Positions 56,413 to 64,000 of a stretch of DNA of 64,000 nucleotides are shown here, piece by piece. The position numbers and the translations under genes are program-made. Under the pieces are notes generated by a model, which ran no database searches, was not told where the DNA came from, and saw nothing but the letters and a program-made list of their open reading frames with translations. The stretch covers positions 801,733 to 865,732 of the forward strand of contig CP012157.1 of the NCBI GenBank assembly GCA_001602455.1, given 5' to 3'. The stretch's first letter is position 1, and each line of letters starts with the position of its first letter. The stretch is from Betaproteobacteria bacterium UKL13-2. Its GTDB lineage: Bacteria; Pseudomonadota; Gammaproteobacteria; Burkholderiales; Usitatibacteraceae.

Positions 56413-58560
56413 TTAGTGATATTCCAACCGTGCCGGGTGAGCACTTTCCAGAACGTTTAGCCGCCCGAGGTCGATCACCCTATCCGCCATCGCAATCGTC
56501 TCAGGCCGGTGGGCCACGATCACGCTAGTGACGCCGAGCGACTTAATCGCCGCGTTCACGAGTCGCTCACCGACCGTATCAAGGTGGCTGGTGGCTTCAT
56601 CAAGGAACAGGACCCGCGGCCGTTTGTATAAAGCGCGAGCGAGAAGAATGCGTTGTTTTTGCCCACCGGAAAGCGAAGTCCCCATATCGCCAACCAAGGT
56701 GGCGTAGCCCATCGGCATACGCACAATGTCGTCGTGGATGGCGGCATACTGGGCACATTGCTCGACCCATCCTTGTGACGAGACCTCCTCAAAAAAACTG
56801 ATGTTGTCAGCAATTGACCCGGCGAAAAGCTGATCATCTTGCATCACAACACCAATGATCTCCCGATACCGCGCTAGCCCCAGGCGGCCAACCGGTATGC
56901 GATCAATGAGGATGCCGCCCTTCTTTGCCGTGAGCAAACCGACCATGATTTTTAAGAGCGTCGTTTTGCCGCAACCCGATGGCCCCACAATCGCCACACA
57001 TTCGCCCGGCTTGACGGCGAAGGTGACGCCGCTTAGCACAGGCTGCTCCAGATCAGAATACGCGAAATGCAAATTGCGGACATCAATACTGGGCGCAGTT
57101 GCAGCAACATCGACCAGTTGCGTGAGGCTGCGCCCAACTTCGTCATCGGCAGCGTGTAAAGCAATATCCGCGACACGCTCGGTGTGCAAGGAAAGCATTT
57201 TGTATTGAATGGCAAGATCCACCAGTGCCGAAATGCGGCCGGTGAAGTTGCCTTTGTAAGACATAAACGCATAGAGCATGCCTACTGAAAAACCACCTTC
57301 CAGAACCATATGCGCGCCGAGCCAAACGATGAGGATATTCTCTGCCCCAAACAGGACGCTATTTGCCGCACCAAACCCTAGCCCCATTTTTTCGATCGCG
57401 ATGCCGCGATTAAAGTTATCGACGGCCAAGTTTTGCCAGGCACTCAATCGAATATCCCGTTTGCCGAAAAGCTTAATACTCTGCACGCCGCGCAGGCTCT
57501 CCAGAAAATGGGATTGTTGTTTTGCCGCGTGCACAATTTGCTCCTCGTTTGCGCGACGCAGTGGTGCGTACATCACAATCCGCAGCAGCGTGTAGAGCAC
57601 GACAGCCACGAACACGACAAGTGTGAGCTGCGGTGCATACAGCAGCATCATGATGAGTGTGGCAATGACCATCATGCCGTCCAGCACCACTTGAATGAAG
57701 CTTGATGTAATGAATGACTGAATCGTTCCCATCGAGCCGAAGCGTGACGTGATGTCGCCCAGATGCCGCTTCTCAAAGTACTCCATCGGTAGCTTGAGCA
57801 GATGCGCAAGGAGATTTGAGGAGACCTGTAGGTTCAGCGAGGTGCTCAAGTAGACGATAAGCCACGAGCGAAACGTGCTCACTGCGAGTTGAATCAACAT
57901 CAGCATAAAGAAGCCGATGGCCAATACCGTCAGCAAGTTGGTATCTGCCGAGGCGATGGCTTGGTCGACGACCAATTGCATAAAGAACGGCGACACCAGC
58001 GTGAACACCTCAAGACAAATTGAAAGAAGTAGTACCTGAATGAGGGCGCGTTTGAGTCCGACTACCTTGCCCAGCAGACTGAGCACGCGTATTTCGCGGC
58101 GCTCATCTTTTTTCTCAAAGCCCTCAGCAGGCAGCAATTCGAGTGCGATACCAGTGAACGCTTTGCCCACCTCAGCCCAAGTGCATTCGCGCAGGCCCCG
58201 CGCTGGGTCGTGGATGACGATGCCGCCAGATTTGACTTCGGTCAGAACGACAAAGTGGGAAAGCTCCCAGTGAAGAATCGCCGGCAGCTTGAGCTGCGAC
58301 ATCTCTTCCAGCTCGAGTCGGAGCGCACGAGAGGTCAGCTTCAGGTCGCCGGCAAACGCGATCAAGTGCGCGAGTGTCGCGCCCTTGATAGATACAGAAA
58401 AACGGCGGCGCAGCGTGGCCAGATCAGTCTTAAAACCAAAGTAGCTCGCCACCATTGCGAGGCATGCAACGCCGCACTCGGCGGCTTCTGTTTGCAGAAT
58501 GACGGGGGCTTTACGCTTGCCGGTGAAATCCAACAGGTCTTGAATGCGGTTTTGTTTCAT
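56413..58560 (-). CDS. Peptidase-containing ABC exporter (C39 domain, bacteriocin type)
   Basis: 715 aa with all three parts. C39 peptidase: QTEAAECGVACLAMVASYFG (catalytic Cys, about residues 24-43), HWELSHFVVL (His) and IVIHDPARG (Asp). Six-helix ABC membrane domain (about residues 165-440). Nucleotide-binding domain: GPSGCGKTTLL, LSGGQKQRILLARAL and VLFLDEATSHLD. Such proteins cut double-glycine leaders and export the mature peptide (CvaB/RaxB type). Its substrates should be the three GG peptides encoded opposite. Confidence 0.95.
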   Translation of the reverse strand: MKQNRIQDLLDFTGKRKAPVILQTEAAECGVACLAMVASYFGFKTDLATLRRRFSVSIKGATLAHLIAFAGDLKLTSRALRLELEEMSQLKLPAILHWELSHFVVLTEVKSGGIVIHDPARGLRECTWAEVGKAFTGIALELLPAEGFEKKDERREIRVLSLLGKVVGLKRALIQVLLLSICLEVFTLVSPFFMQLVVDQAIASADTNLLTVLAIGFFMLMLIQLAVSTFRSWLIVYLSTSLNLQVSSNLLAHLLKLPMEYFEKRHLGDITSRFGSMGTIQSFITSSFIQVVLDGMMVIATLIMMLLYAPQLTLVVFVAVVLYTLLRIVMYAPLRRANEEQIVHAAKQQSHFLESLRGVQSIKLFGKRDIRLSAWQNLAVDNFNRGIAIEKMGLGFGAANSVLFGAENILIVWLGAHMVLEGGFSVGMLYAFMSYKGNFTGRISALVDLAIQYKMLSLHTERVADIALHAADDEVGRSLTQLVDVAATAPSIDVRNLHFAYSDLEQPVLSGVTFAVKPGECVAIVGPSGCGKTTLLKIMVGLLTAKKGGILIDRIPVGRLGLARYREIIGVVMQDDQLFAGSIADNISFFEEVSSQGWVEQCAQYAAIHDDIVRMPMGYATLVGDMGTSLSGGQKQRILLARALYKRPRVLFLDEATSHLDTVGERLVNAAIKSLGVTSVIVAHRPETIAMADRVIDLGRLNVLESAHPARLEYH

Positions 58561-58745
58561 ACGATCAAATCACCTAAGTGAGTAGAAGTCACGCTACCCA
58601 ATACTGTCGTCCCTGCACACAACCACAAGGGTTGCGCCGGGCCGGGAGCCAATTTTGCGGTTGCCGAGGTGGCGGAACATGAGATCCCAAGCCCGTCGCT
58701 ACCGATGTTGTGGTTCTTGCGGCATGGAGAAATCGCCTTGCTCAC
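58557..58745 (-). CDS. 62-codon ORF between hlyD and the exporter gene
   Basis: Starts with GTG overlapping the hlyD stop (GTGA) and ends with TGA overlapping the exporter ATG (ATGA), so the operon's reading is continuous through it. The product begins MSKAISPCRKNHNIGSDGLG, with three cysteines, many Ser/Thr/Gly, and no double-glycine leader or clear TM. Overlap at both ends is a strong hint that it is translated, if only to couple the two genes. No family recognised. Confidence 0.5.
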   Translation of the reverse strand: MSKAISPCRKNHNIGSDGLGISCSATSATAKLAPGPAQPLWLCAGTTVLGSVTSTHLGDLIV

Positions 58746-60004
58746 ACGCGCCGCGCCATGCTGTAAAGCGGGTCGAGGATGAGTTGATAGAGCTTTCGAT
58801 GCTCAATCTGTATATCGGCGTCGAGCTGCATGCCTGCTACCAGCGGGTAATCTTTGCCGTAAGCCTGAATGGATTGTTGTTCGAGCTTTACCGTGATGCG
58901 GTAGCGCGGCTCGCGCATCTCGCTTGTGGCGATTTGCGCGGGTAGCTCCTGCGGGTTCACGGTCGTCTTCGAGATACTGGTCACTACCCCTTTGTAGTGC
59001 CCAAAGCGTTCGAACCTAAACGCCGCATAGCGCAAGCGCACTGGCTGCCCCACCGCCAGAAAGCCAATGGCACGGGACGAGACCAGCAAATGCGCTTCCA
59101 AATCTGCGCCTGCCGGCAGCACCGTTGCGAGGGTTGCTCCCGGCGCAGCCGGTTGGCCGACCTCGGCGAGGATCGCGGTTGCAACACCGTCAACTGGCGA
59201 GGTCACGGCCACGGCACGTTGCGATTCAAAGGTGGCGGCTTCCTGCCCGGCCATCGCCAGCGCGCGATCAAGCCCCGCGATCTGGGCATCTGCGCGTAAG
59301 TGTTGTAACGGTATCTCTTGCTTGAGTGTCGCCATCTCGCGTTCTAGTGCGAGCGCTGCACGCTGGCTGGATTGCAAAAGCCGTACCTGCTCCAGCTTTT
59401 CGTCTTCTCGTTGGGTGACTTGCGCTGCCGAAATGAAACCTTGCGCCGCAAGACTCTTAAATCGTTCCAACTGTTCTTCGGAACGATGCACGCGCTCACG
59501 CTGGGTAGCGATTTCATCGCGTAGCTGTTGCAATTCCAGCCCGACCTTTTCACGCCGCGAGATGAGCGCCGCCTCGTTCATCTTCGCCAGTGCGAGCTGC
59601 TTTTCCTTCTCGCCGACGAGCGAGGTGCGACGATTTTGCAGCTCCGCCGCAGCCGCTTCGAGCGTTGCGCCAGCCGCGACGGACTCGCGCTCAGCGGACA
59701 CCACAAACAACACATCACCGGCGCGCACTTGCGCGCCTTCAGCAACACGGCGCTCGGTGATCTTTCCCACCAGCGGCGTCAGCACGCGAACCTTGCCCTT
59801 ACTTGGTGTGAGATAGCCGGTTGCCACTTCCTTGCGGGTGTAGGAAGCGAGCGCCAGAAACGCGATAATTGCGGCGGCAAAAACTAACGAAACGAGTGTT
59901 AGCCATGCAAAGGATAATGGCCGGTACAACACCACTTCGCCGATGAGGTGTTTAGTCTGCGCGTGGAGCGCTTCCCTGCGAAAAAGTTCCGTGCTGTCGC
60001 CCAT
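58742..60004 (-). CDS. HlyD/CvaA-type membrane fusion protein
   Basis: 420 aa. One TM near the N-terminus (LVSLVFAAAIIAFLALASYT) after EALHAQTKHLIGEVVLYRPL. Then the lipoyl-like half GYLTPSKGKVRVLTPLVG, a long coiled-coil hairpin (about residues 125-235), and the return half AVTSPVDGVATAILAEVG. It bridges the peptide exporter to an outer-membrane TolC-like channel (not in this window). Its first 59 codons and the divergent promoter are copied twice downstream (61813 and 62461). Confidence 0.93.
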   Translation of the reverse strand: MGDSTELFRREALHAQTKHLIGEVVLYRPLSFAWLTLVSLVFAAAIIAFLALASYTRKEVATGYLTPSKGKVRVLTPLVGKITERRVAEGAQVRAGDVLFVVSAERESVAAGATLEAAAAELQNRRTSLVGEKEKQLALAKMNEAALISRREKVGLELQQLRDEIATQRERVHRSEEQLERFKSLAAQGFISAAQVTQREDEKLEQVRLLQSSQRAALALEREMATLKQEIPLQHLRADAQIAGLDRALAMAGQEAATFESQRAVAVTSPVDGVATAILAEVGQPAAPGATLATVLPAGADLEAHLLVSSRAIGFLAVGQPVRLRYAAFRFERFGHYKGVVTSISKTTVNPQELPAQIATSEMREPRYRITVKLEQQSIQAYGKDYPLVAGMQLDADIQIEHRKLYQLILDPLYSMARRV

Positions 60005-60035
60005 TTATTTTTTTAAACATATGTTGTTAAAAGTG

Positions 60036-60066
60036 TTGACAAGTATGGGGGGGGGTTAACTATATT
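60036..60066 (+). promoter_or_regulatory. Promoter of GG peptide 1 with G9 tract in the spacer
   Basis: TTGACA (60036-60041), a 19-bp spacer containing nine G (60047-60055) and TATATT (60061-60066). Downstream, CTGCC-GACGT-GGCAG (60075-60089) forms a small inverted repeat, and GGGG before ATG serves the ribosome. The copies at 62022 and 62671 keep all boxes. Spacers of 19-20 bp are longer than the optimal 17. Confidence 0.75.
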
Positions 60067-60113
60067 TGCAAGTGCTGCCGACGTGGCAGTAACACTTAAA
60101 TTGGGGTTACAAC

Positions 60114-60506
60114 ATGCGTGAATTGACAATTAGCGAAGCTGGTGCCGTGTCCGGAGGAAACCCAGCTGCAGGTGCAGTCGCTGCGGGGGGATGTGCAGTC
60201 GGCGCGGTGACGGGGGGTGCCGCTGGAATGGCAGTTGCAAATCAGACTGGAAATTCCGCAGGGGTTGGCATCGTGGCCGGCGCCGTCGGCGGGTGTGTTG
60301 CCGCGGGGGCGAACGCGGTGGTTTCGGTTGCAGCACGGAACGTTCCAAGCCAAACAGGATCAGTCGGCGCAGCTGGCGGCGCATTGACGGCTGCCCTTGT
60401 ATTCGCGGCGCCGACGCCTGACGATGGATCGGCGGGGCTAATGGATCCGTACTCTGGCTGGTCAAGGGATTACGACAACGGAAAACTTATCCCGATGGTC
60501 AGGTAG
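60114..60506 (+). CDS. Double-glycine-leader peptide 1 (bacteriocin-like)
   Basis: 130 codons. Leader MRELTISEAGAVSGG is a textbook GG leader (MREL-x3-E-x3-VSGG) for cleavage after Gly15 by a C39 exporter. The mature part (115 aa) is very rich in Gly, Ala and Val in membrane-compatible segments (GGCAVGAVTGGAAGMAV, GVGIVAGAVGGCVAAG) with two cysteines, as in class II microcin/bacteriocin precursors. Polar tail ending GKLIPMVR. No immunity gene is obvious. The target is not known. Confidence 0.85.
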   Translation: MRELTISEAGAVSGGNPAAGAVAAGGCAVGAVTGGAAGMAVANQTGNSAGVGIVAGAVGGCVAAGANAVVSVAARNVPSQTGSVGAAGGALTAALVFAAPTPDDGSAGLMDPYSGWSRDYDNGKLIPMVR

Positions 60507-60533
60507 GGCGATTCATCGCGGTATTCCATGGGG

Positions 60534-60567
60534 AGCCGAAGGGCAGTTTCTTAGTTGCCCTTCGGCT
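60534..60567 (+). terminator. Strong hairpin after GG peptide 1
   Basis: AGCCGAAGGGCA / TGCCCTTCGGCT, a perfect 12-bp stem with 10-nt loop. The following bases are not T-rich, so it may stabilise the mRNA end or attenuate, rather than act as a classic terminator. Confidence 0.6.
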
Positions 60568-60610
60568 GAATATAGAGATTAACCGATAAACACAACGCTG
60601 GTTTTGACGC

Positions 60611-61570
60611 TTGCACGCACCTACTGCTTTGAAAACTTTTCAATTAAAGATCGAAGTCCTGACGAATCAATATGTTCGGATTCGCTCAATCATGGCGTAT
60701 GCCCTCTTCATTTTCTCAACGTCGGCGATTGCTGCATCGGAAAGGGGCATTCTTTACGTGGTCGAGTCAAAAGACGGGCGACAAATTGGATGTGTTGTCG
60801 GGACTATTCATACGCACACTGCAACGGACGAGTTTTTAGGAAAGTTTGTAAAGCATTGCGGCCGACGGGGCCAGATCGTCATTATGGAAGTGGCGCCGCC
60901 TGTATCTCGCGAAGCTGCTCTAAAAGAGCAGAATCAGATCGATGCGTTGACGAATCCCGCCGTGCCAAGTAAGTTCCGGTCTGACCAGCTCGCAATCATT
61001 CAGTCGAATACCACGCGGTTAATGGCTGTTGGATTAGACGCTCAGGCGCTAGGCAAACTGCCGATTTGGCAATCGTCCTTCTCTGTGGCACTTGCTGACA
61101 TGAACCAATTCCTTCCCTCCCCGCGCGTAAACATGGAGCAACAGCTTTTTGCTAGTCTTTCCAAGGTGGGAGTAAGTGCCACTTTGGGATTAGAAAGGGC
61201 AATTGATCAGATTCAGCCTTATGCTCGCCTCAGTTACGAAGACCAGGTATACATGCTGAGTAGATCAATCGCTAATTTAGGGACAACTCGAACGAAAGTA
61301 TTCTTGGCTGCGATCGTCGACGCGTGGTTGATCGGCGATCATGAGAAGGTGCTTTCCTCTCTTGACCGGTATTCTCAGTCCGCTCGTGAGCGGAGGCTTG
61401 CAGATCAGACGATATTTGTGCGAAATGCACCCCTCGTAAAAGCGCTTGAACGATCTATAGCTGGCGAGGCGCGCCCCTTTACACTGATGATTGGCGCGTT
61501 ACATCTGGGGAAGTCGAGTGGTGTTCTTGCGTACTTTTCTGGGGCCGGGTATAGATTGCGGCAAGCTTAA
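60611..61570 (+). CDS. TraB/GumN family protein, exported
   Basis: Up to 319 codons from TTG at 60611. The first ATG is at 60692, but the RIRSIMAYALFIFSTSAIAA segment needs upstream charged residues to work as a signal peptide, so the start is uncertain. Family marks: CVVGTIHTHTATDEFLG (the GTxH motif of the N-terminal half), VIMEVAPP, and the C-terminal FTLMIGALHLGKSSGVLAYF (GxxH repeat). TraB/GumN/Tiki proteins are suspected metal-dependent peptidases. Enterococcal TraB shuts down peptide pheromone. Its place between GG-peptide genes suggests a role in peptide handling or immunity. Confidence 0.75.
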   Translation: MHAPTALKTFQLKIEVLTNQYVRIRSIMAYALFIFSTSAIAASERGILYVVESKDGRQIGCVVGTIHTHTATDEFLGKFVKHCGRRGQIVIMEVAPPVSREAALKEQNQIDALTNPAVPSKFRSDQLAIIQSNTTRLMAVGLDAQALGKLPIWQSSFSVALADMNQFLPSPRVNMEQQLFASLSKVGVSATLGLERAIDQIQPYARLSYEDQVYMLSRSIANLGTTRTKVFLAAIVDAWLIGDHEKVLSSLDRYSQSARERRLADQTIFVRNAPLVKALERSIAGEARPFTLMIGALHLGKSSGVLAYFSGAGYRLRQA

Positions 61571-61606
61571 GAGTGTTCCACTTAAGCGGTTTTGTTGGGG
61601 AATCAG

Positions 61607-61777
61607 ATGCGCTATAAATCCGCTAGCTTCTTGCTTGGTATAGGTACGATTTTTTTTGCCGTCATCCTTGTGATCCTCGACCTATCGTCGTTTGGGCTGC
61701 ATATGCTTCTGATCTTCATCGGGGCCGGGCTGCTGGACTATTCCTCAATCAAGAAAGTAAGCGCGGGCCGGAGCTGA
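61607..61777 (+). CDS. Small two-helix membrane protein
   Basis: 56 aa from the ATG at 61607 (GGGG 7 nt before). SASFLLGIGTIFFAVILVIL and GLHMLLIFIGAGLLDY are two membrane helices with a short basic tail (KKVSAGRS). It is 37 bp after the TraB-like gene. A small immunity or accessory protein is plausible by size and position only. Confidence 0.5.
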   Translation: MRYKSASFLLGIGTIFFAVILVILDLSSFGLHMLLIFIGAGLLDYSSIKKVSAGRS

Positions 61778-61785
61778 AGAAGGCA

Positions 61786-61812
61786 ATAAATTAGGGTCAG
61801 ACACCATTTTCT
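61786..61812 (+). repeat. Breakpoint motif at the first duplicated cassette
   Basis: ATAAATTAGGGTCAGACACC, then ATTTTCT, one base different in the core from the others. The copied hlyD sequence begins at the next base. Confidence 0.85.
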
Positions 61813-61990
61813 CTTCCTTGCGGGTGTAGGAAGCGAGCGCCAGAAACGCGATAATTGCGGCGGCAAAAACTAACGAAACGAGTGTTAGCCATGCAAAGGA
61901 TAATGGCCGGTACAACACCACTTCGCCGATGAGGTGTTTAGTCTGCGCGTGGAGCGCTTCCCTGCGAAAAAGTTCCGTGCTGTCGCCCAT
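61813..61990 (-). pseudogene. hlyD 5' fragment, copy 1
   Basis: 178 bp, essentially identical to 59827-60004 (the first 59 codons of hlyD). The frame runs out through the breakpoint motif (reading ...TRKE-EKMVSDPN). It encodes the TM helix only, so it could at most make a short membrane peptide. Confidence 0.92.
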
Positions 61991-62021
61991 TTATTTTTTT
62001 AAACATATGTTGTTAAAAGTG

Positions 62022-62053
62022 TTGACAAGTATGGGGGGGGGGTTAACTATATT
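62022..62053 (+). promoter_or_regulatory. Promoter of GG peptide 2 with G10 tract
   Basis: TTGACA (62022-62027), a 20-bp spacer with ten G (62033-62042) and TATATT (62048-62053). One G longer than the other two copies. The inverted repeat downstream has the same arms with a different centre (CTGCC-GGTGT-GGCAG). Confidence 0.75.
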
Positions 62054-62100
62054 TGCAAGTGCTGCCGGTGTGGCAGTAACAATTAAATTGGGGTTACAAC

Positions 62101-62502
62101 ATGCGTGAGCTAAGTGTGAATGAAGTTGGGTTTGTTTCGGGGGGTAATGGATGTTCCGGTCCCGGTAGTGGGGGATCTGGTTCGTCGGGAAGTGGGGGAT
62201 CTGGGTCAGGCACCACAGTAACATGCAGCTCCCTGCCTAATGGTGGTGGCCAGTGCACGACAAGAACTGGAAACACGTCGGTTACGACTACTTTCAATTC
62301 AAGTGGCACCGCGACAGCAGTGACGACGTGTACCAATTCTGGTGGACGTGGTTCTGTTGGGGGATTCTTCAGATGGGTTCTCGGGATCGAGGGCAGCGGG
62401 GATTCAGGGTCATGCCAGACCTATAAACTCGAAATAAATTGGGGTCAGACACCATTTTCTCTTCCTTGCGGGTGTAGGAAGCGAGCGCCAGAAACGCGAT
62501 AA
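62101..62502 (+). CDS. Double-glycine-leader peptide 2 (C-terminus altered by a repeat)
   Basis: 133 codons. Leader MRELSVNEVGFVSGG. The mature part starts NGCSG, then a Gly/Ser linker-like run, then CSSLPNGGGQCTTRTGNTSV, TTCTNSGGRGSVGGFFRWVL and SCQTYKLEI. After KLEI the last ~20 codons are encoded by the breakpoint motif and by copied hlyD sequence, so the tail (NWGQTPFSLPCGCRKRAPET) is foreign. Peptide 3 shows the likely native end. Confidence 0.82.
   Translation: MRELSVNEVGFVSGGNGCSGPGSGGSGSSGSGGSGSGTTVTCSSLPNGGGQCTTRTGNTSVTTTFNSSGTATAVTTCTNSGGRGSVGGFFRWVLGIEGSGDSGSCQTYKLEINWGQTPFSLPCGCRKRAPETR
62434..62460 (+). repeat. Breakpoint motif at the second duplicated cassette
   Basis: ATAAATTGGGGTCAGACACC, then ATTTTCT. 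It lies inside the end of peptide gene 2, directly before copied hlyD sequence. Confidence 0.88.
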
Positions 62503-62638
62503 TTGCGGCGGCAAAAACTAACGAAACGAGTGTTAGCCATGCAAAGGATAATGGCCGGTATAACACCACTTCGCCGATGAGGTGTTTAGTCTGCGCGTGT
62601 AGCGCTTCCCTGCGAAAAAGTTCCGTGCCGTCGCCCAT
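62461..62638 (-). pseudogene. hlyD 5' fragment, copy 2
   Basis: 178 bp again matching 59827-60004, with a few base changes (MGDGTELF instead of MGDSTELF). Not a working adaptor gene. Confidence 0.92.
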
Positions 62639-62670
62639 TTATTTTTTTTAAACATATGTTGTTAAAAGTG

Positions 62671-62701
62671 TTGACAAGTATGGGGGGGGGTTAACTATAT
62701 T
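62671..62701 (+). promoter_or_regulatory. Promoter of GG peptide 3 with G9 tract
   Basis: TTGACA (62671-62676), 19-bp spacer with nine G (62682-62690), TATATT (62696-62701), and the CTGCC-GATGT-GGCAG inverted repeat downstream. Confidence 0.75.
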
Positions 62702-62748
62702 TGCAAGTGCTGCCGATGTGGCAGTAACAATTAAATTGGGGTTACAAC

Positions 62749-63105
62749 ATGCGTGAGCTAAGTGTGAATGAAGTTGGGTTTGTTTCGGGGGGTAACGGAT
62801 GTTCCGGTTCCGGTAGTGGGGGGTCTGGTTCGTCGGGGAGTGGGGGGTCTGGGGCAGGCTCCACAACAACATGCAGCTCCCTGCCTAATGGTGGTGGCCA
62901 GTGCACGACAAGAACTGGAAACACGTCGGTTACGACTACTTTCAATTCAAGTGGCACCGCGACAGCAGTGACGACGTGTACCAATTCTGGTGGACGTGGT
63001 TCTGTTGCGGGATTCTTCGCAAGGGTTTTCGGGTTCGAAGGCAATGGGAGTTCGTCGTCATGCCAGCAATATAAACTCGAGATACAGGCGCCGAGGTACG
63101 GGTGA
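62749..63105 (+). CDS. Double-glycine-leader peptide 3
   Basis: 118 codons. Leader identical to peptide 2 (MRELSVNEVGFVSGG) and mature part about 85-90% identical, with the same five-cysteine layout (NGCSG, TCSS, GQCT, TTCT, SSCQ). Substitutions cluster in the Gly/Ser run and near GFFARVFGFEGNGS. The end, YKLEIQAPRYG, is probably the native C-terminus. Ser/Thr/Gly-rich and hydrophilic, unlike peptide 1. Confidence 0.85.
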   Translation: MRELSVNEVGFVSGGNGCSGSGSGGSGSSGSGGSGAGSTTTCSSLPNGGGQCTTRTGNTSVTTTFNSSGTATAVTTCTNSGGRGSVAGFFARVFGFEGNGSSSSCQQYKLEIQAPRYG

Positions 63106-63151
63106 CCATCAATATTTGGCTGATCCAGTGATTCTAGTCAGCCACTAGGGT

Positions 63152-63179
63152 AGCGGGGCGTGCTTTTGCCCCGCTTTTT
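63152..63179 (+). terminator. Rho-independent terminator after GG peptide 3
   Basis: AGCGGGGC / GCCCCGCT, 8-nt loop, then TTTT. Confidence 0.9.
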
Positions 63180-63205
63180 CGCTTCGTTTTTGGCTTAAAT
63201 TCGTT

Positions 63206-64000
63206 ATGGCTATGCACAAAATTCACTATTCACGCATCCTCATGCAGCGCTTTACAAGGCAGCTTCTTTTGTTTCTGACCTGTGCGGTTGTATTCGCTTG
63301 CCAAGCGCAGCCGCTTCCTCGTCTTTTGGCCATCGAGAGTCAGAATGGGGTGGGCTTTTTGCTTCCGGAGACGCATTTCGGATTAAAAGTTGAGTTCGAC
63401 GCGTATTACAGCAATGTCATTCTGCCGGCCGCAAAGGCTTCAAACTTGGTTGTGCCGGAAGGGGTCGCATTGGGGGGGGCAATGCATGACCCGAACAGCA
63501 GATCGGATTGCGCGGGTCTCGACCCCCAAAAAGCGCGTCGCAAAGAAAGTGAGGCATTGGTCAACAAGTTTCTATTTGACCATCCTGGCAGGCTGGTGAT
63601 TGGGGGGTTTGCACAAACTCATAAAGAGTCGGAGCGCCAAACTTTTGTGGACTTAATCGCCATGTATCCATTCATCCTGAAGTTGGATGAAATCAACCAT
63701 CAGGTTAAGGTTCGGGATTTTCCGCTGCCAGGGTGGAAAGATCCAAGTGTGTTGTTTAAGCTTGAGCGGTACATTATGTCTCGCGATGGTCGGCGGGAGC
63801 CGCTTGAGGACTTCGGTGATTTTAAAAGGTCGTTCTGCCTGGTCCCCGAGGATAGACAACACGAATTCGTGAAGGCGCTAATCGCGCTTCATGCGGTGCG
63901 CGAAGACTACGATAAGGTAGATCTCTCAAAAGGGGAACTTTGCTTCAGGTCGGGGATGCGACAAATAAAAAATCAGCTTATGTGTATGGGGGCCGTGGCG
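63206..64000 (+). CDS. Second TraB/GumN-like exported protein (3' end outside window)
   Basis: 265 codons open to the window's last base. Signal sequence LLLFLTCAVVFACQAQP, possibly a lipoprotein signal (VFAC). NGVGFLLPETHFGLKVEFDA followed by ILPAAKASNLVVPEG parallels the GTxH segment of TraB/GumN proteins, with PETH in place of GTxH. Divergent from the first copy (60611). If the family is right, two such genes flank the GG peptides. The C-terminal motif that would confirm it lies beyond the window. Confidence 0.5.
   Translation, partial: MAMHKIHYSRILMQRFTRQLLLFLTCAVVFACQAQPLPRLLAIESQNGVGFLLPETHFGLKVEFDAYYSNVILPAAKASNLVVPEGVALGGAMHDPNSRSDCAGLDPQKARRKESEALVNKFLFDHPGRLVIGGFAQTHKESERQTFVDLIAMYPFILKLDEINHQVKVRDFPLPGWKDPSVLFKLERYIMSRDGRREPLEDFGDFKRSFCLVPEDRQHEFVKALIALHAVREDYDKVDLSKGELCFRSGMRQIKNQLMCMGAVA

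What the first reader, a model, noticed from the sequence alone, without database searches (positions are those of the whole stretch)
60036..62701. G tract of 9-10 bases between -35 and -10 in three promoter copies: likely phase-variable promoters
Seen: TTGACA and TATATT are separated by 19, 20 and 19 bp, and the only length difference is the G run (9, 10, 9). Known: poly-G or poly-C runs between promoter boxes, as in Neisseria porA and opc, switch expression by slipped-strand mispairing. Inference: loss of two G would give the optimal 17-bp spacing, so each peptide could be set independently. The 9-versus-10 difference within one genome is itself evidence of tract instability.
Basis: partly seen in the sequence, partly recalled or inferred. 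Interest (0 to 1): 0.82.

Follow-up and report, generated by a model that had tools for sequence, protein, structure and literature searches.

The report
Array of G-tract-switched secreted-peptide genes
A betaproteobacterium carries nine copies of a small secreted-peptide (probably bacteriocin) cassette, each with a slippage-prone run of 9-16 G inside its promoter, so sister cells probably make different mixtures of these peptides by chance; this type of switch is known, but no such array of switched peptide genes was found described.

Summary
The three window promoters (TTGACA-AGTAT-Gn-TTAAC-TATATT; G9, G10, G9; spacers 19, 20, 19) are the first of nine copies in this genome (G runs 9,10,9,11,11,10,9,16,10; spacers 19-23). 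A congener has one copy (G10). Each drives a peptide with a double-glycine leader. Copy 1 stands divergent to a full hlyD and C39-peptidase ABC exporter; the other eight carry only a truncated hlyD start behind a 20-nt interspersed repeat. The G tract is the fastest-changing site: 29 of 36 copy pairs differ in G number although flanks differ by about 2%, and the only other indel is a T7/T8 run. The architecture is absent from 397 other genomes of the order. Best reading: spacer-length phase-variable promoters of the porA/tp0126 kind, one per microcin-like cassette. Not shown: length mixtures in a clone, transcription, peptide activity. New variant of a known kind.

The parts
60036..60066 (+). 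Promoter copy 1: TTGACA, 19-bp spacer with G9 (60047-60055), TATATT
   Evidence: sequence, genome-wide pattern, alignment
62022..62053 (+). Promoter copy 2: 20-bp spacer with G10 (62033-62042)
62671..62701 (+). Promoter copy 3: 19-bp spacer with G9 (62682-62690)
60114..60506 (+). Peptide gene 1, leader MRELTISEAGAVSGG, Gly/Ala-rich core
   Evidence: ORF; no Pfam or NCBIfam match
62101..62502 (+). Peptide gene 2, leader MRELSVNEVGFVSGG; its frame runs into the interspersed repeat and hlyD fragment of copy 3
   Evidence: ORF
62749..63105 (+). Peptide gene 3, leader MRELSVNEVGFVSGG; terminator-like hairpin at 63152-63175
   Evidence: ORF, terminator scan
58742..60004 (-). Full-length hlyD, divergent from promoter copy 1
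   Evidence: PF13437; 95% identical to the congener's protein
56413..58560 (-). C39-peptidase ABC exporter
   Evidence: PF03412, PF00664, PF00005
61811..61990 (-). Truncated hlyD start (60 codons) upstream of promoter copy 2
62462..62638 (-). Truncated hlyD start (59 codons) upstream of promoter copy 3
61794..61813 (+). 20-nt interspersed repeat at the 5' edge of cassette 2
62442..62461 (+). 20-nt interspersed repeat at the 5' edge of cassette 3
60611..61570 (+). TraB/PrgY/GumN-family gene of cassette 1 (start codon uncertain)
   Evidence: PF01963
61607..61777 (+). Small hydrophobic protein of cassette 1; candidate self-protection gene (inference)
   Evidence: ORF; no family above cut-off
63206..64000 (+). 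GumN-like gene of cassette 3 (runs past the window end)
   Evidence: PF01963

Best explanation
This is an array of nine secreted-peptide cassettes (double-glycine leader, microcin/bacteriocin-like) probably served by one exporter (HlyD plus C39-peptidase ABC). Each cassette has its own sigma70-type promoter whose -35/-10 spacer contains a G tract. Replication slippage changes the tract by one or more G and thereby the spacer (19-23 bp in this assembly), which raises or lowers transcription of that cassette alone. Because nine tracts change independently, a clone would contain cells expressing different subsets of the peptides. With an E. coli-like polymerase, G9 (19 bp: copies 1, 3, 7) should be relatively active and G10 or more (20-23 bp) weak. 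Shown from sequence: the array, conserved hexamers, tract positions, tract-length diversity, leaders, exporter. Inferred: sigma70 use, slippage as the cause, the expression effect, independence, shared export, bacteriocin function.
For: Nine copies with G runs 9,10,9,11,11,10,9,16,10. 29 of 36 pairs differ in G number; over the unit from the hlyD fragment to the start codon (290 alignment columns) the mean substitution difference is 2.0%, and the only other indel site is a T7/T8 run. Copies 3 and 5 differ at 1 of 273 flanking sites but have G9 versus G11. Over a 3.79-kb segmental duplication (genome 864174-867947 vs 875241-879017, 45 substitutions) there are only four indels: the T run, the G tract (9 vs 16), and two 11-bp changes next to the interspersed repeat. 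Tract length needs 6 changes on the copy tree, no fewer than any of 2000 shuffles; the T run needs 2. AAGTGTTGACAAGTAT and ACTATATTTGCAAG are invariant in all nine copies and in the congener, whose unit differs at 10-12% of sites. Precedents with a tract between the boxes: porA and Treponema tp0126, optimum 17 bp (PMC7864442, PMC3639595). E. coli promoter libraries: strong at 15-19 bp, significantly lower above (PMC8695583).
Against: No reads, so no length mixture is shown; assembly errors in homopolymers cannot be excluded for single tracts. Copies are diverged enough that any G9-10 run could have drifted, so diversity does not prove selection for switching. No copy has an optimal 16-18 bp spacer. 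mutS and mutL are intact, so no raised slippage rate is expected from that side. No transcription start or expression data. Gene conversion between copies could also reassort tract lengths. The peptides match no curated bacteriocin family.
Confidence: 0.66

Rival explanations
1. Neutral drift: the G tract is an ordinary slippage-prone run in a weak or constitutive promoter. It differs between copies because any G9-10 run drifts over this divergence, and length has no useful effect on expression.
For: Copies differ by 0.4-3.9% in the flanks, enough time for a homopolymer to drift. A T run in the same unit also varies. All spacers are beyond the optimum.
Against: The tract sits exactly between invariant hexamers in all ten copies, where length must alter RNA polymerase geometry, and it has not been shortened below 9 or interrupted in any copy or in the congener.
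Confidence: 0.2
2. Regulated long-spacer promoter: an activator (MerR-like or binding upstream) drives a promoter with a naturally long 19-20 bp spacer, and the G tract is a structural spacer, not a switch.
For: Most copies have 19-20 bp, the spacer typical of MerR-family promoters (PMC1526738). Palindrome-like AACATATGTT upstream and an inverted repeat after the -10 are conserved in most copies.
Against: The spacer has no dyad (4 of 19 best self-complementary matches). Spacers range to 21 and 23 bp. AACATATGTT is altered in copy 9.
Confidence: 0.1
3. Assembly or consensus artefact: the tracts are one length and the differences come from homopolymer calling errors.
For: Long G runs are a common error site; the sequencing platform is unknown.
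Against: Copies 5 and 8 also differ in the bases next to the tract (TAAC and AC in place of TTAAC), which is not a pure length error. The congener carries its own G10 tract in an independent assembly.
Confidence: 0.04

Closest known systems
Neisseria meningitidis porA promoter
   Same: Poly-G between -35 and -10; its length sets the spacer and the expression level (PMC3639595, PMC7864442)
   Different: Single locus for a porin, optimum near 17 bp. Here nine copies, peptide genes, spacers 19-23 bp
Treponema pallidum tp0126 promoter
   Same: Poly-G between -35 and -10, best when the distance is 17 (PMC7864442)
   Different: Single outer-membrane protein gene
Neisseria nap island
   Same: Bacteriocin-like peptides with GG leaders and homopolymer phase variation (PMC11798529)
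   Different: Tracts lie inside the reading frames of napR and napC, not in promoter spacers; napABC are one operon, not separately promoted cassettes
Class II microcin / colicin V-type gene clusters (from general knowledge)
   Same: GG-leader precursor, C39-ABC exporter with HlyD partner, small downstream genes
   Different: Peptide cores match no curated family; nine cassettes, eight of them with a copied promoter and a truncated hlyD start
Neisseria opc promoter
   Same: Homopolymer length controls transcription (PMC3447861)
   Different: Poly-C overlaps the -35 rather than filling the spacer (PMC7864442)

Membership tests
Spacer-tract phase-variable promoter (porA / tp0126 type) | Homopolymer lies between recognisable -35 and -10 hexamers | tested here: met
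   All nine copies plus the congener
Spacer-tract phase-variable promoter (porA / tp0126 type) | Tract length varies between otherwise near-identical copies | tested here: met
   29 of 36 pairs differ; flanks about 2% different
Spacer-tract phase-variable promoter (porA / tp0126 type) | Observed lengths include the optimal 16-18 bp spacer (not strictly defining; lengths vary between individuals) | tested here: inconclusive
   Spacers are 19-23 in all ten copies, so no optimal length is seen; 19 bp is at the edge of the strong range in E. coli (PMC8695583)
Spacer-tract phase-variable promoter (porA / tp0126 type) | Length mixtures arise within a clone | not testable with these tools
   No reads available
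Spacer-tract phase-variable promoter (porA / tp0126 type) | Transcription depends on tract length | not testable with these tools
   Needs reporters or RNA data
Double-glycine-leader bacteriocin/microcin system | Precursor with GG leader | tested here: met
   MREL...SGG in all nine own copies and the congener
Double-glycine-leader bacteriocin/microcin system | Adjacent C39-peptidase ABC exporter and HlyD | tested here: met
   PF03412, PF00005, PF13437
Double-glycine-leader bacteriocin/microcin system | Match to a curated bacteriocin precursor family (not strictly defining) | tested here: not met
   No Pfam or NCBIfam match over cut-off for the precursors tested
Double-glycine-leader bacteriocin/microcin system | Antibacterial activity and cognate immunity | not testable with these tools
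   Downstream CAAX-protease-like, GumN-like and small membrane genes are candidates only
MerR-type 19-20 bp promoter | Dyad symmetry in the spacer | tested here: not met
   Best self-complementary match 4 of 19

The most novel reading that the evidence does not exclude
A combinatorial contingency array: nine independently slipping promoters give each lineage its own subset of secreted bacteriocins, with the downstream self-protection genes switched too, so clonal populations diversify at random in weapon and resistance profile.
Probability: 0.33. Interest if true: 0.8.

Novelty: new variant of a known kind. Interest (0 to 1): 0.6.

Why it matters
Homopolymer phase variation is mostly studied for surface antigens of host-adapted pathogens. 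Here the same device is multiplied nine times in front of different secreted peptides beside one exporter, in a genus whose only named relative found is a Rhodocyclaceae MAG. If switching is real, bacteriocin repertoire becomes a heritable random variable within a clone, and the genome offers nine near-identical natural promoters that differ mainly in spacer length, a ready test set for spacer effects.

Tried and rejected
Chance G runs: a first-order Markov model expects about 10 runs of G9 or more in the genome; 18 exist, nine in this array and nine scattered, so the scattered ones fit chance and the array does not. MerR-type promoter: no dyad. Mutator background: mutS and mutL intact. Wider occurrence: 60 relatives, the 28 family genomes and 399 order genomes gave only one other carrier. 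hlyD homologues elsewhere in the family show no comparable tract next to a recognisable GG peptide, but the leader test there was a crude regular expression that missed the known case too, so it is weak. 5' hairpin: arms conserved, but folding energy not special. The sigma70 scan found nothing at 16-18 bp in 58000-64000, consistent with long spacers. The organism could not be named; a guess at Casimicrobium was not tested further.

Full report
Observation. The whole genome (one contig, 3,387,087 bases; window = 801733-865732) contains nine copies, all on the same strand, between 861768 and 879095. G runs are 9, 10, 9, 11, 11, 10, 9, 16 and 10. In copy 5 the flank TTAAC reads TAAC and in copy 8 AC, so spacers are 19, 20, 19, 21, 20, 20, 19, 23, 20.

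Context. Copy 1 lies between a divergent full-length hlyD (58742-60004, minus), followed by a C39-peptidase ABC exporter (56413-58560, minus), and a peptide gene (60114-60506). Pfam supports both exporter parts. Each promoter is followed about 47 nt after the TATATT by a start codon and a double-glycine leader, most often MRELSVNEVGFVSGG. The cores differ: Gly/Ala-rich in copy 1; Ser/Gly/Thr-rich with Cys in copies 2, 3, 5 and 8; others in copies 4, 6, 7 and 9. Downstream genes differ by cassette: GumN-like (copies 1, 3, 8), CAAX-protease-like (copies 4, 6, 9), a possible peptidase (copy 7) and small hydrophobic proteins. CAAX-protease-like and small membrane proteins serve as bacteriocin self-protection genes in other systems (general knowledge); here that is only a suggestion.

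Structure of the array. Copies 2-9 carry only the first 59-60 codons of hlyD, in the divergent orientation, joined to a 20-nt repeat GGGTCAGACACCATTTTCTC. The repeat has 24 exact copies and one near copy in the genome, 13 of them in the array; another group lies around a Y1 (IS200-like) transposase gene at about 3096.5 kb. Cassettes 3-4 and 8-9 are related by a 3.79-kb duplication, 98.1% identical. The array therefore grew by duplication of a unit that starts at this repeat and includes the hlyD start, promoter, peptide and downstream genes (inference). The congener (MAG contig JADCJC010000028.1, 'Rhodocyclaceae bacterium') has a single copy next to a full hlyD and exporter, with G10; one copy in that place is probably the ancestral state (inference).

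Is the tract unusually variable? Among nine copies, 29 of 36 pairs differ in G number. The rest of the unit differs by 2.0% on average, and the only other indel site is a T run of 7 or 8. Copies 3 and 5 differ at 1 of 273 flanking positions but have G9 and G11. In the 3.79-kb duplication the four indels are the T run, the G tract (9 versus 16) and two 11-bp changes beside the interspersed repeat. On a tree of the flanks, tract length needs six changes, no fewer than any shuffled labelling, and the T run two. The tree is weakly resolved and gene conversion is possible, so this shows lack of phylogenetic signal, not a rate. A per-generation rate cannot be inferred: any G9-10 run might drift over this divergence.

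Is it a promoter, and would length matter? The stretches AAGTGTTGACAAGTAT and ACTATATTTGCAAG are invariant in all ten copies although the congener differs at 10-12% of the unit. No transcript data were available. Tracts placed this way control porA and tp0126, with an optimum at a 17-bp spacer (PMC7864442, PMC3639595). In a random-spacer library in E. coli, expression was high from 15 to 19 bp and significantly lower above (PMC8695583). By that yardstick copies 1, 3 and 7 (19 bp) would be more active than the rest (20-23 bp), and a one-base change G9 to G10 would cross the boundary. mutS and mutL are intact.

Comparison. The switch type is known. Phase-variable bacteriocin-like peptides are also known (nap island, PMC11798529), but there the tracts lie in reading frames. 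Searches of the literature held here found no report of an array of GG-leader peptide cassettes each with a spacer tract; that library holds open-licence papers only. The same promoter pattern was absent from 397 other genomes of the order.

Verdict. Observation confirmed and extended; interpretation partly supported. The strongest claim the evidence allows is a multiplied, tract-diverse promoter of the porA kind in front of microcin-like cassettes. Switching in a clone, the expression effect and peptide activity remain inferences.

Noticed in passing
61794-61813, 62442-62461; 25 places genome-wide: A 20-nt repeat GGGTCAGACACCATTTTCTC marks the 5' edge of every added cassette and recurs in clusters at 920-933 kb, 1028-1033 kb and 3096-3102 kb, the last near a Y1 (IS200-like) transposase gene; it may drive or record the duplications.
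   Followed up: partly
L009:8247-9641 (genome 866246-867640) and its copy at about 877.3-878.7 kb: DDE transposase gene inside the array, included in the 3.79-kb duplication.
   Followed up: partly
L016:309 (genome 935108) and L017:301 (genome 1318000): G10 run inside a long open frame that looks by eye like RCC1-type repeats, and G9 inside another long open frame: possible translational slippage sites.
   Followed up: partly
L020:289 (genome 2892088-2892100): C13 run, the second longest G/C tract in the genome, at a place where a coding-looking frame continues through it.
   Followed up: no
L014:12000-12284 (congener): Second GG-leader peptide gene (MKILTLSDCELVSGG) near the congener's locus without this G-tract promoter.
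   Followed up: no
L014:10278-10682 (congener): Internally shortened fragment of hlyD a few kb from the intact copy, another sign of recombination at this locus.
   Followed up: no
60073-60091 and equivalents: Conserved inverted repeat right after the -10 with a variable loop; possible operator or 5' stem-loop, but folding energy is not special.
   Followed up: partly
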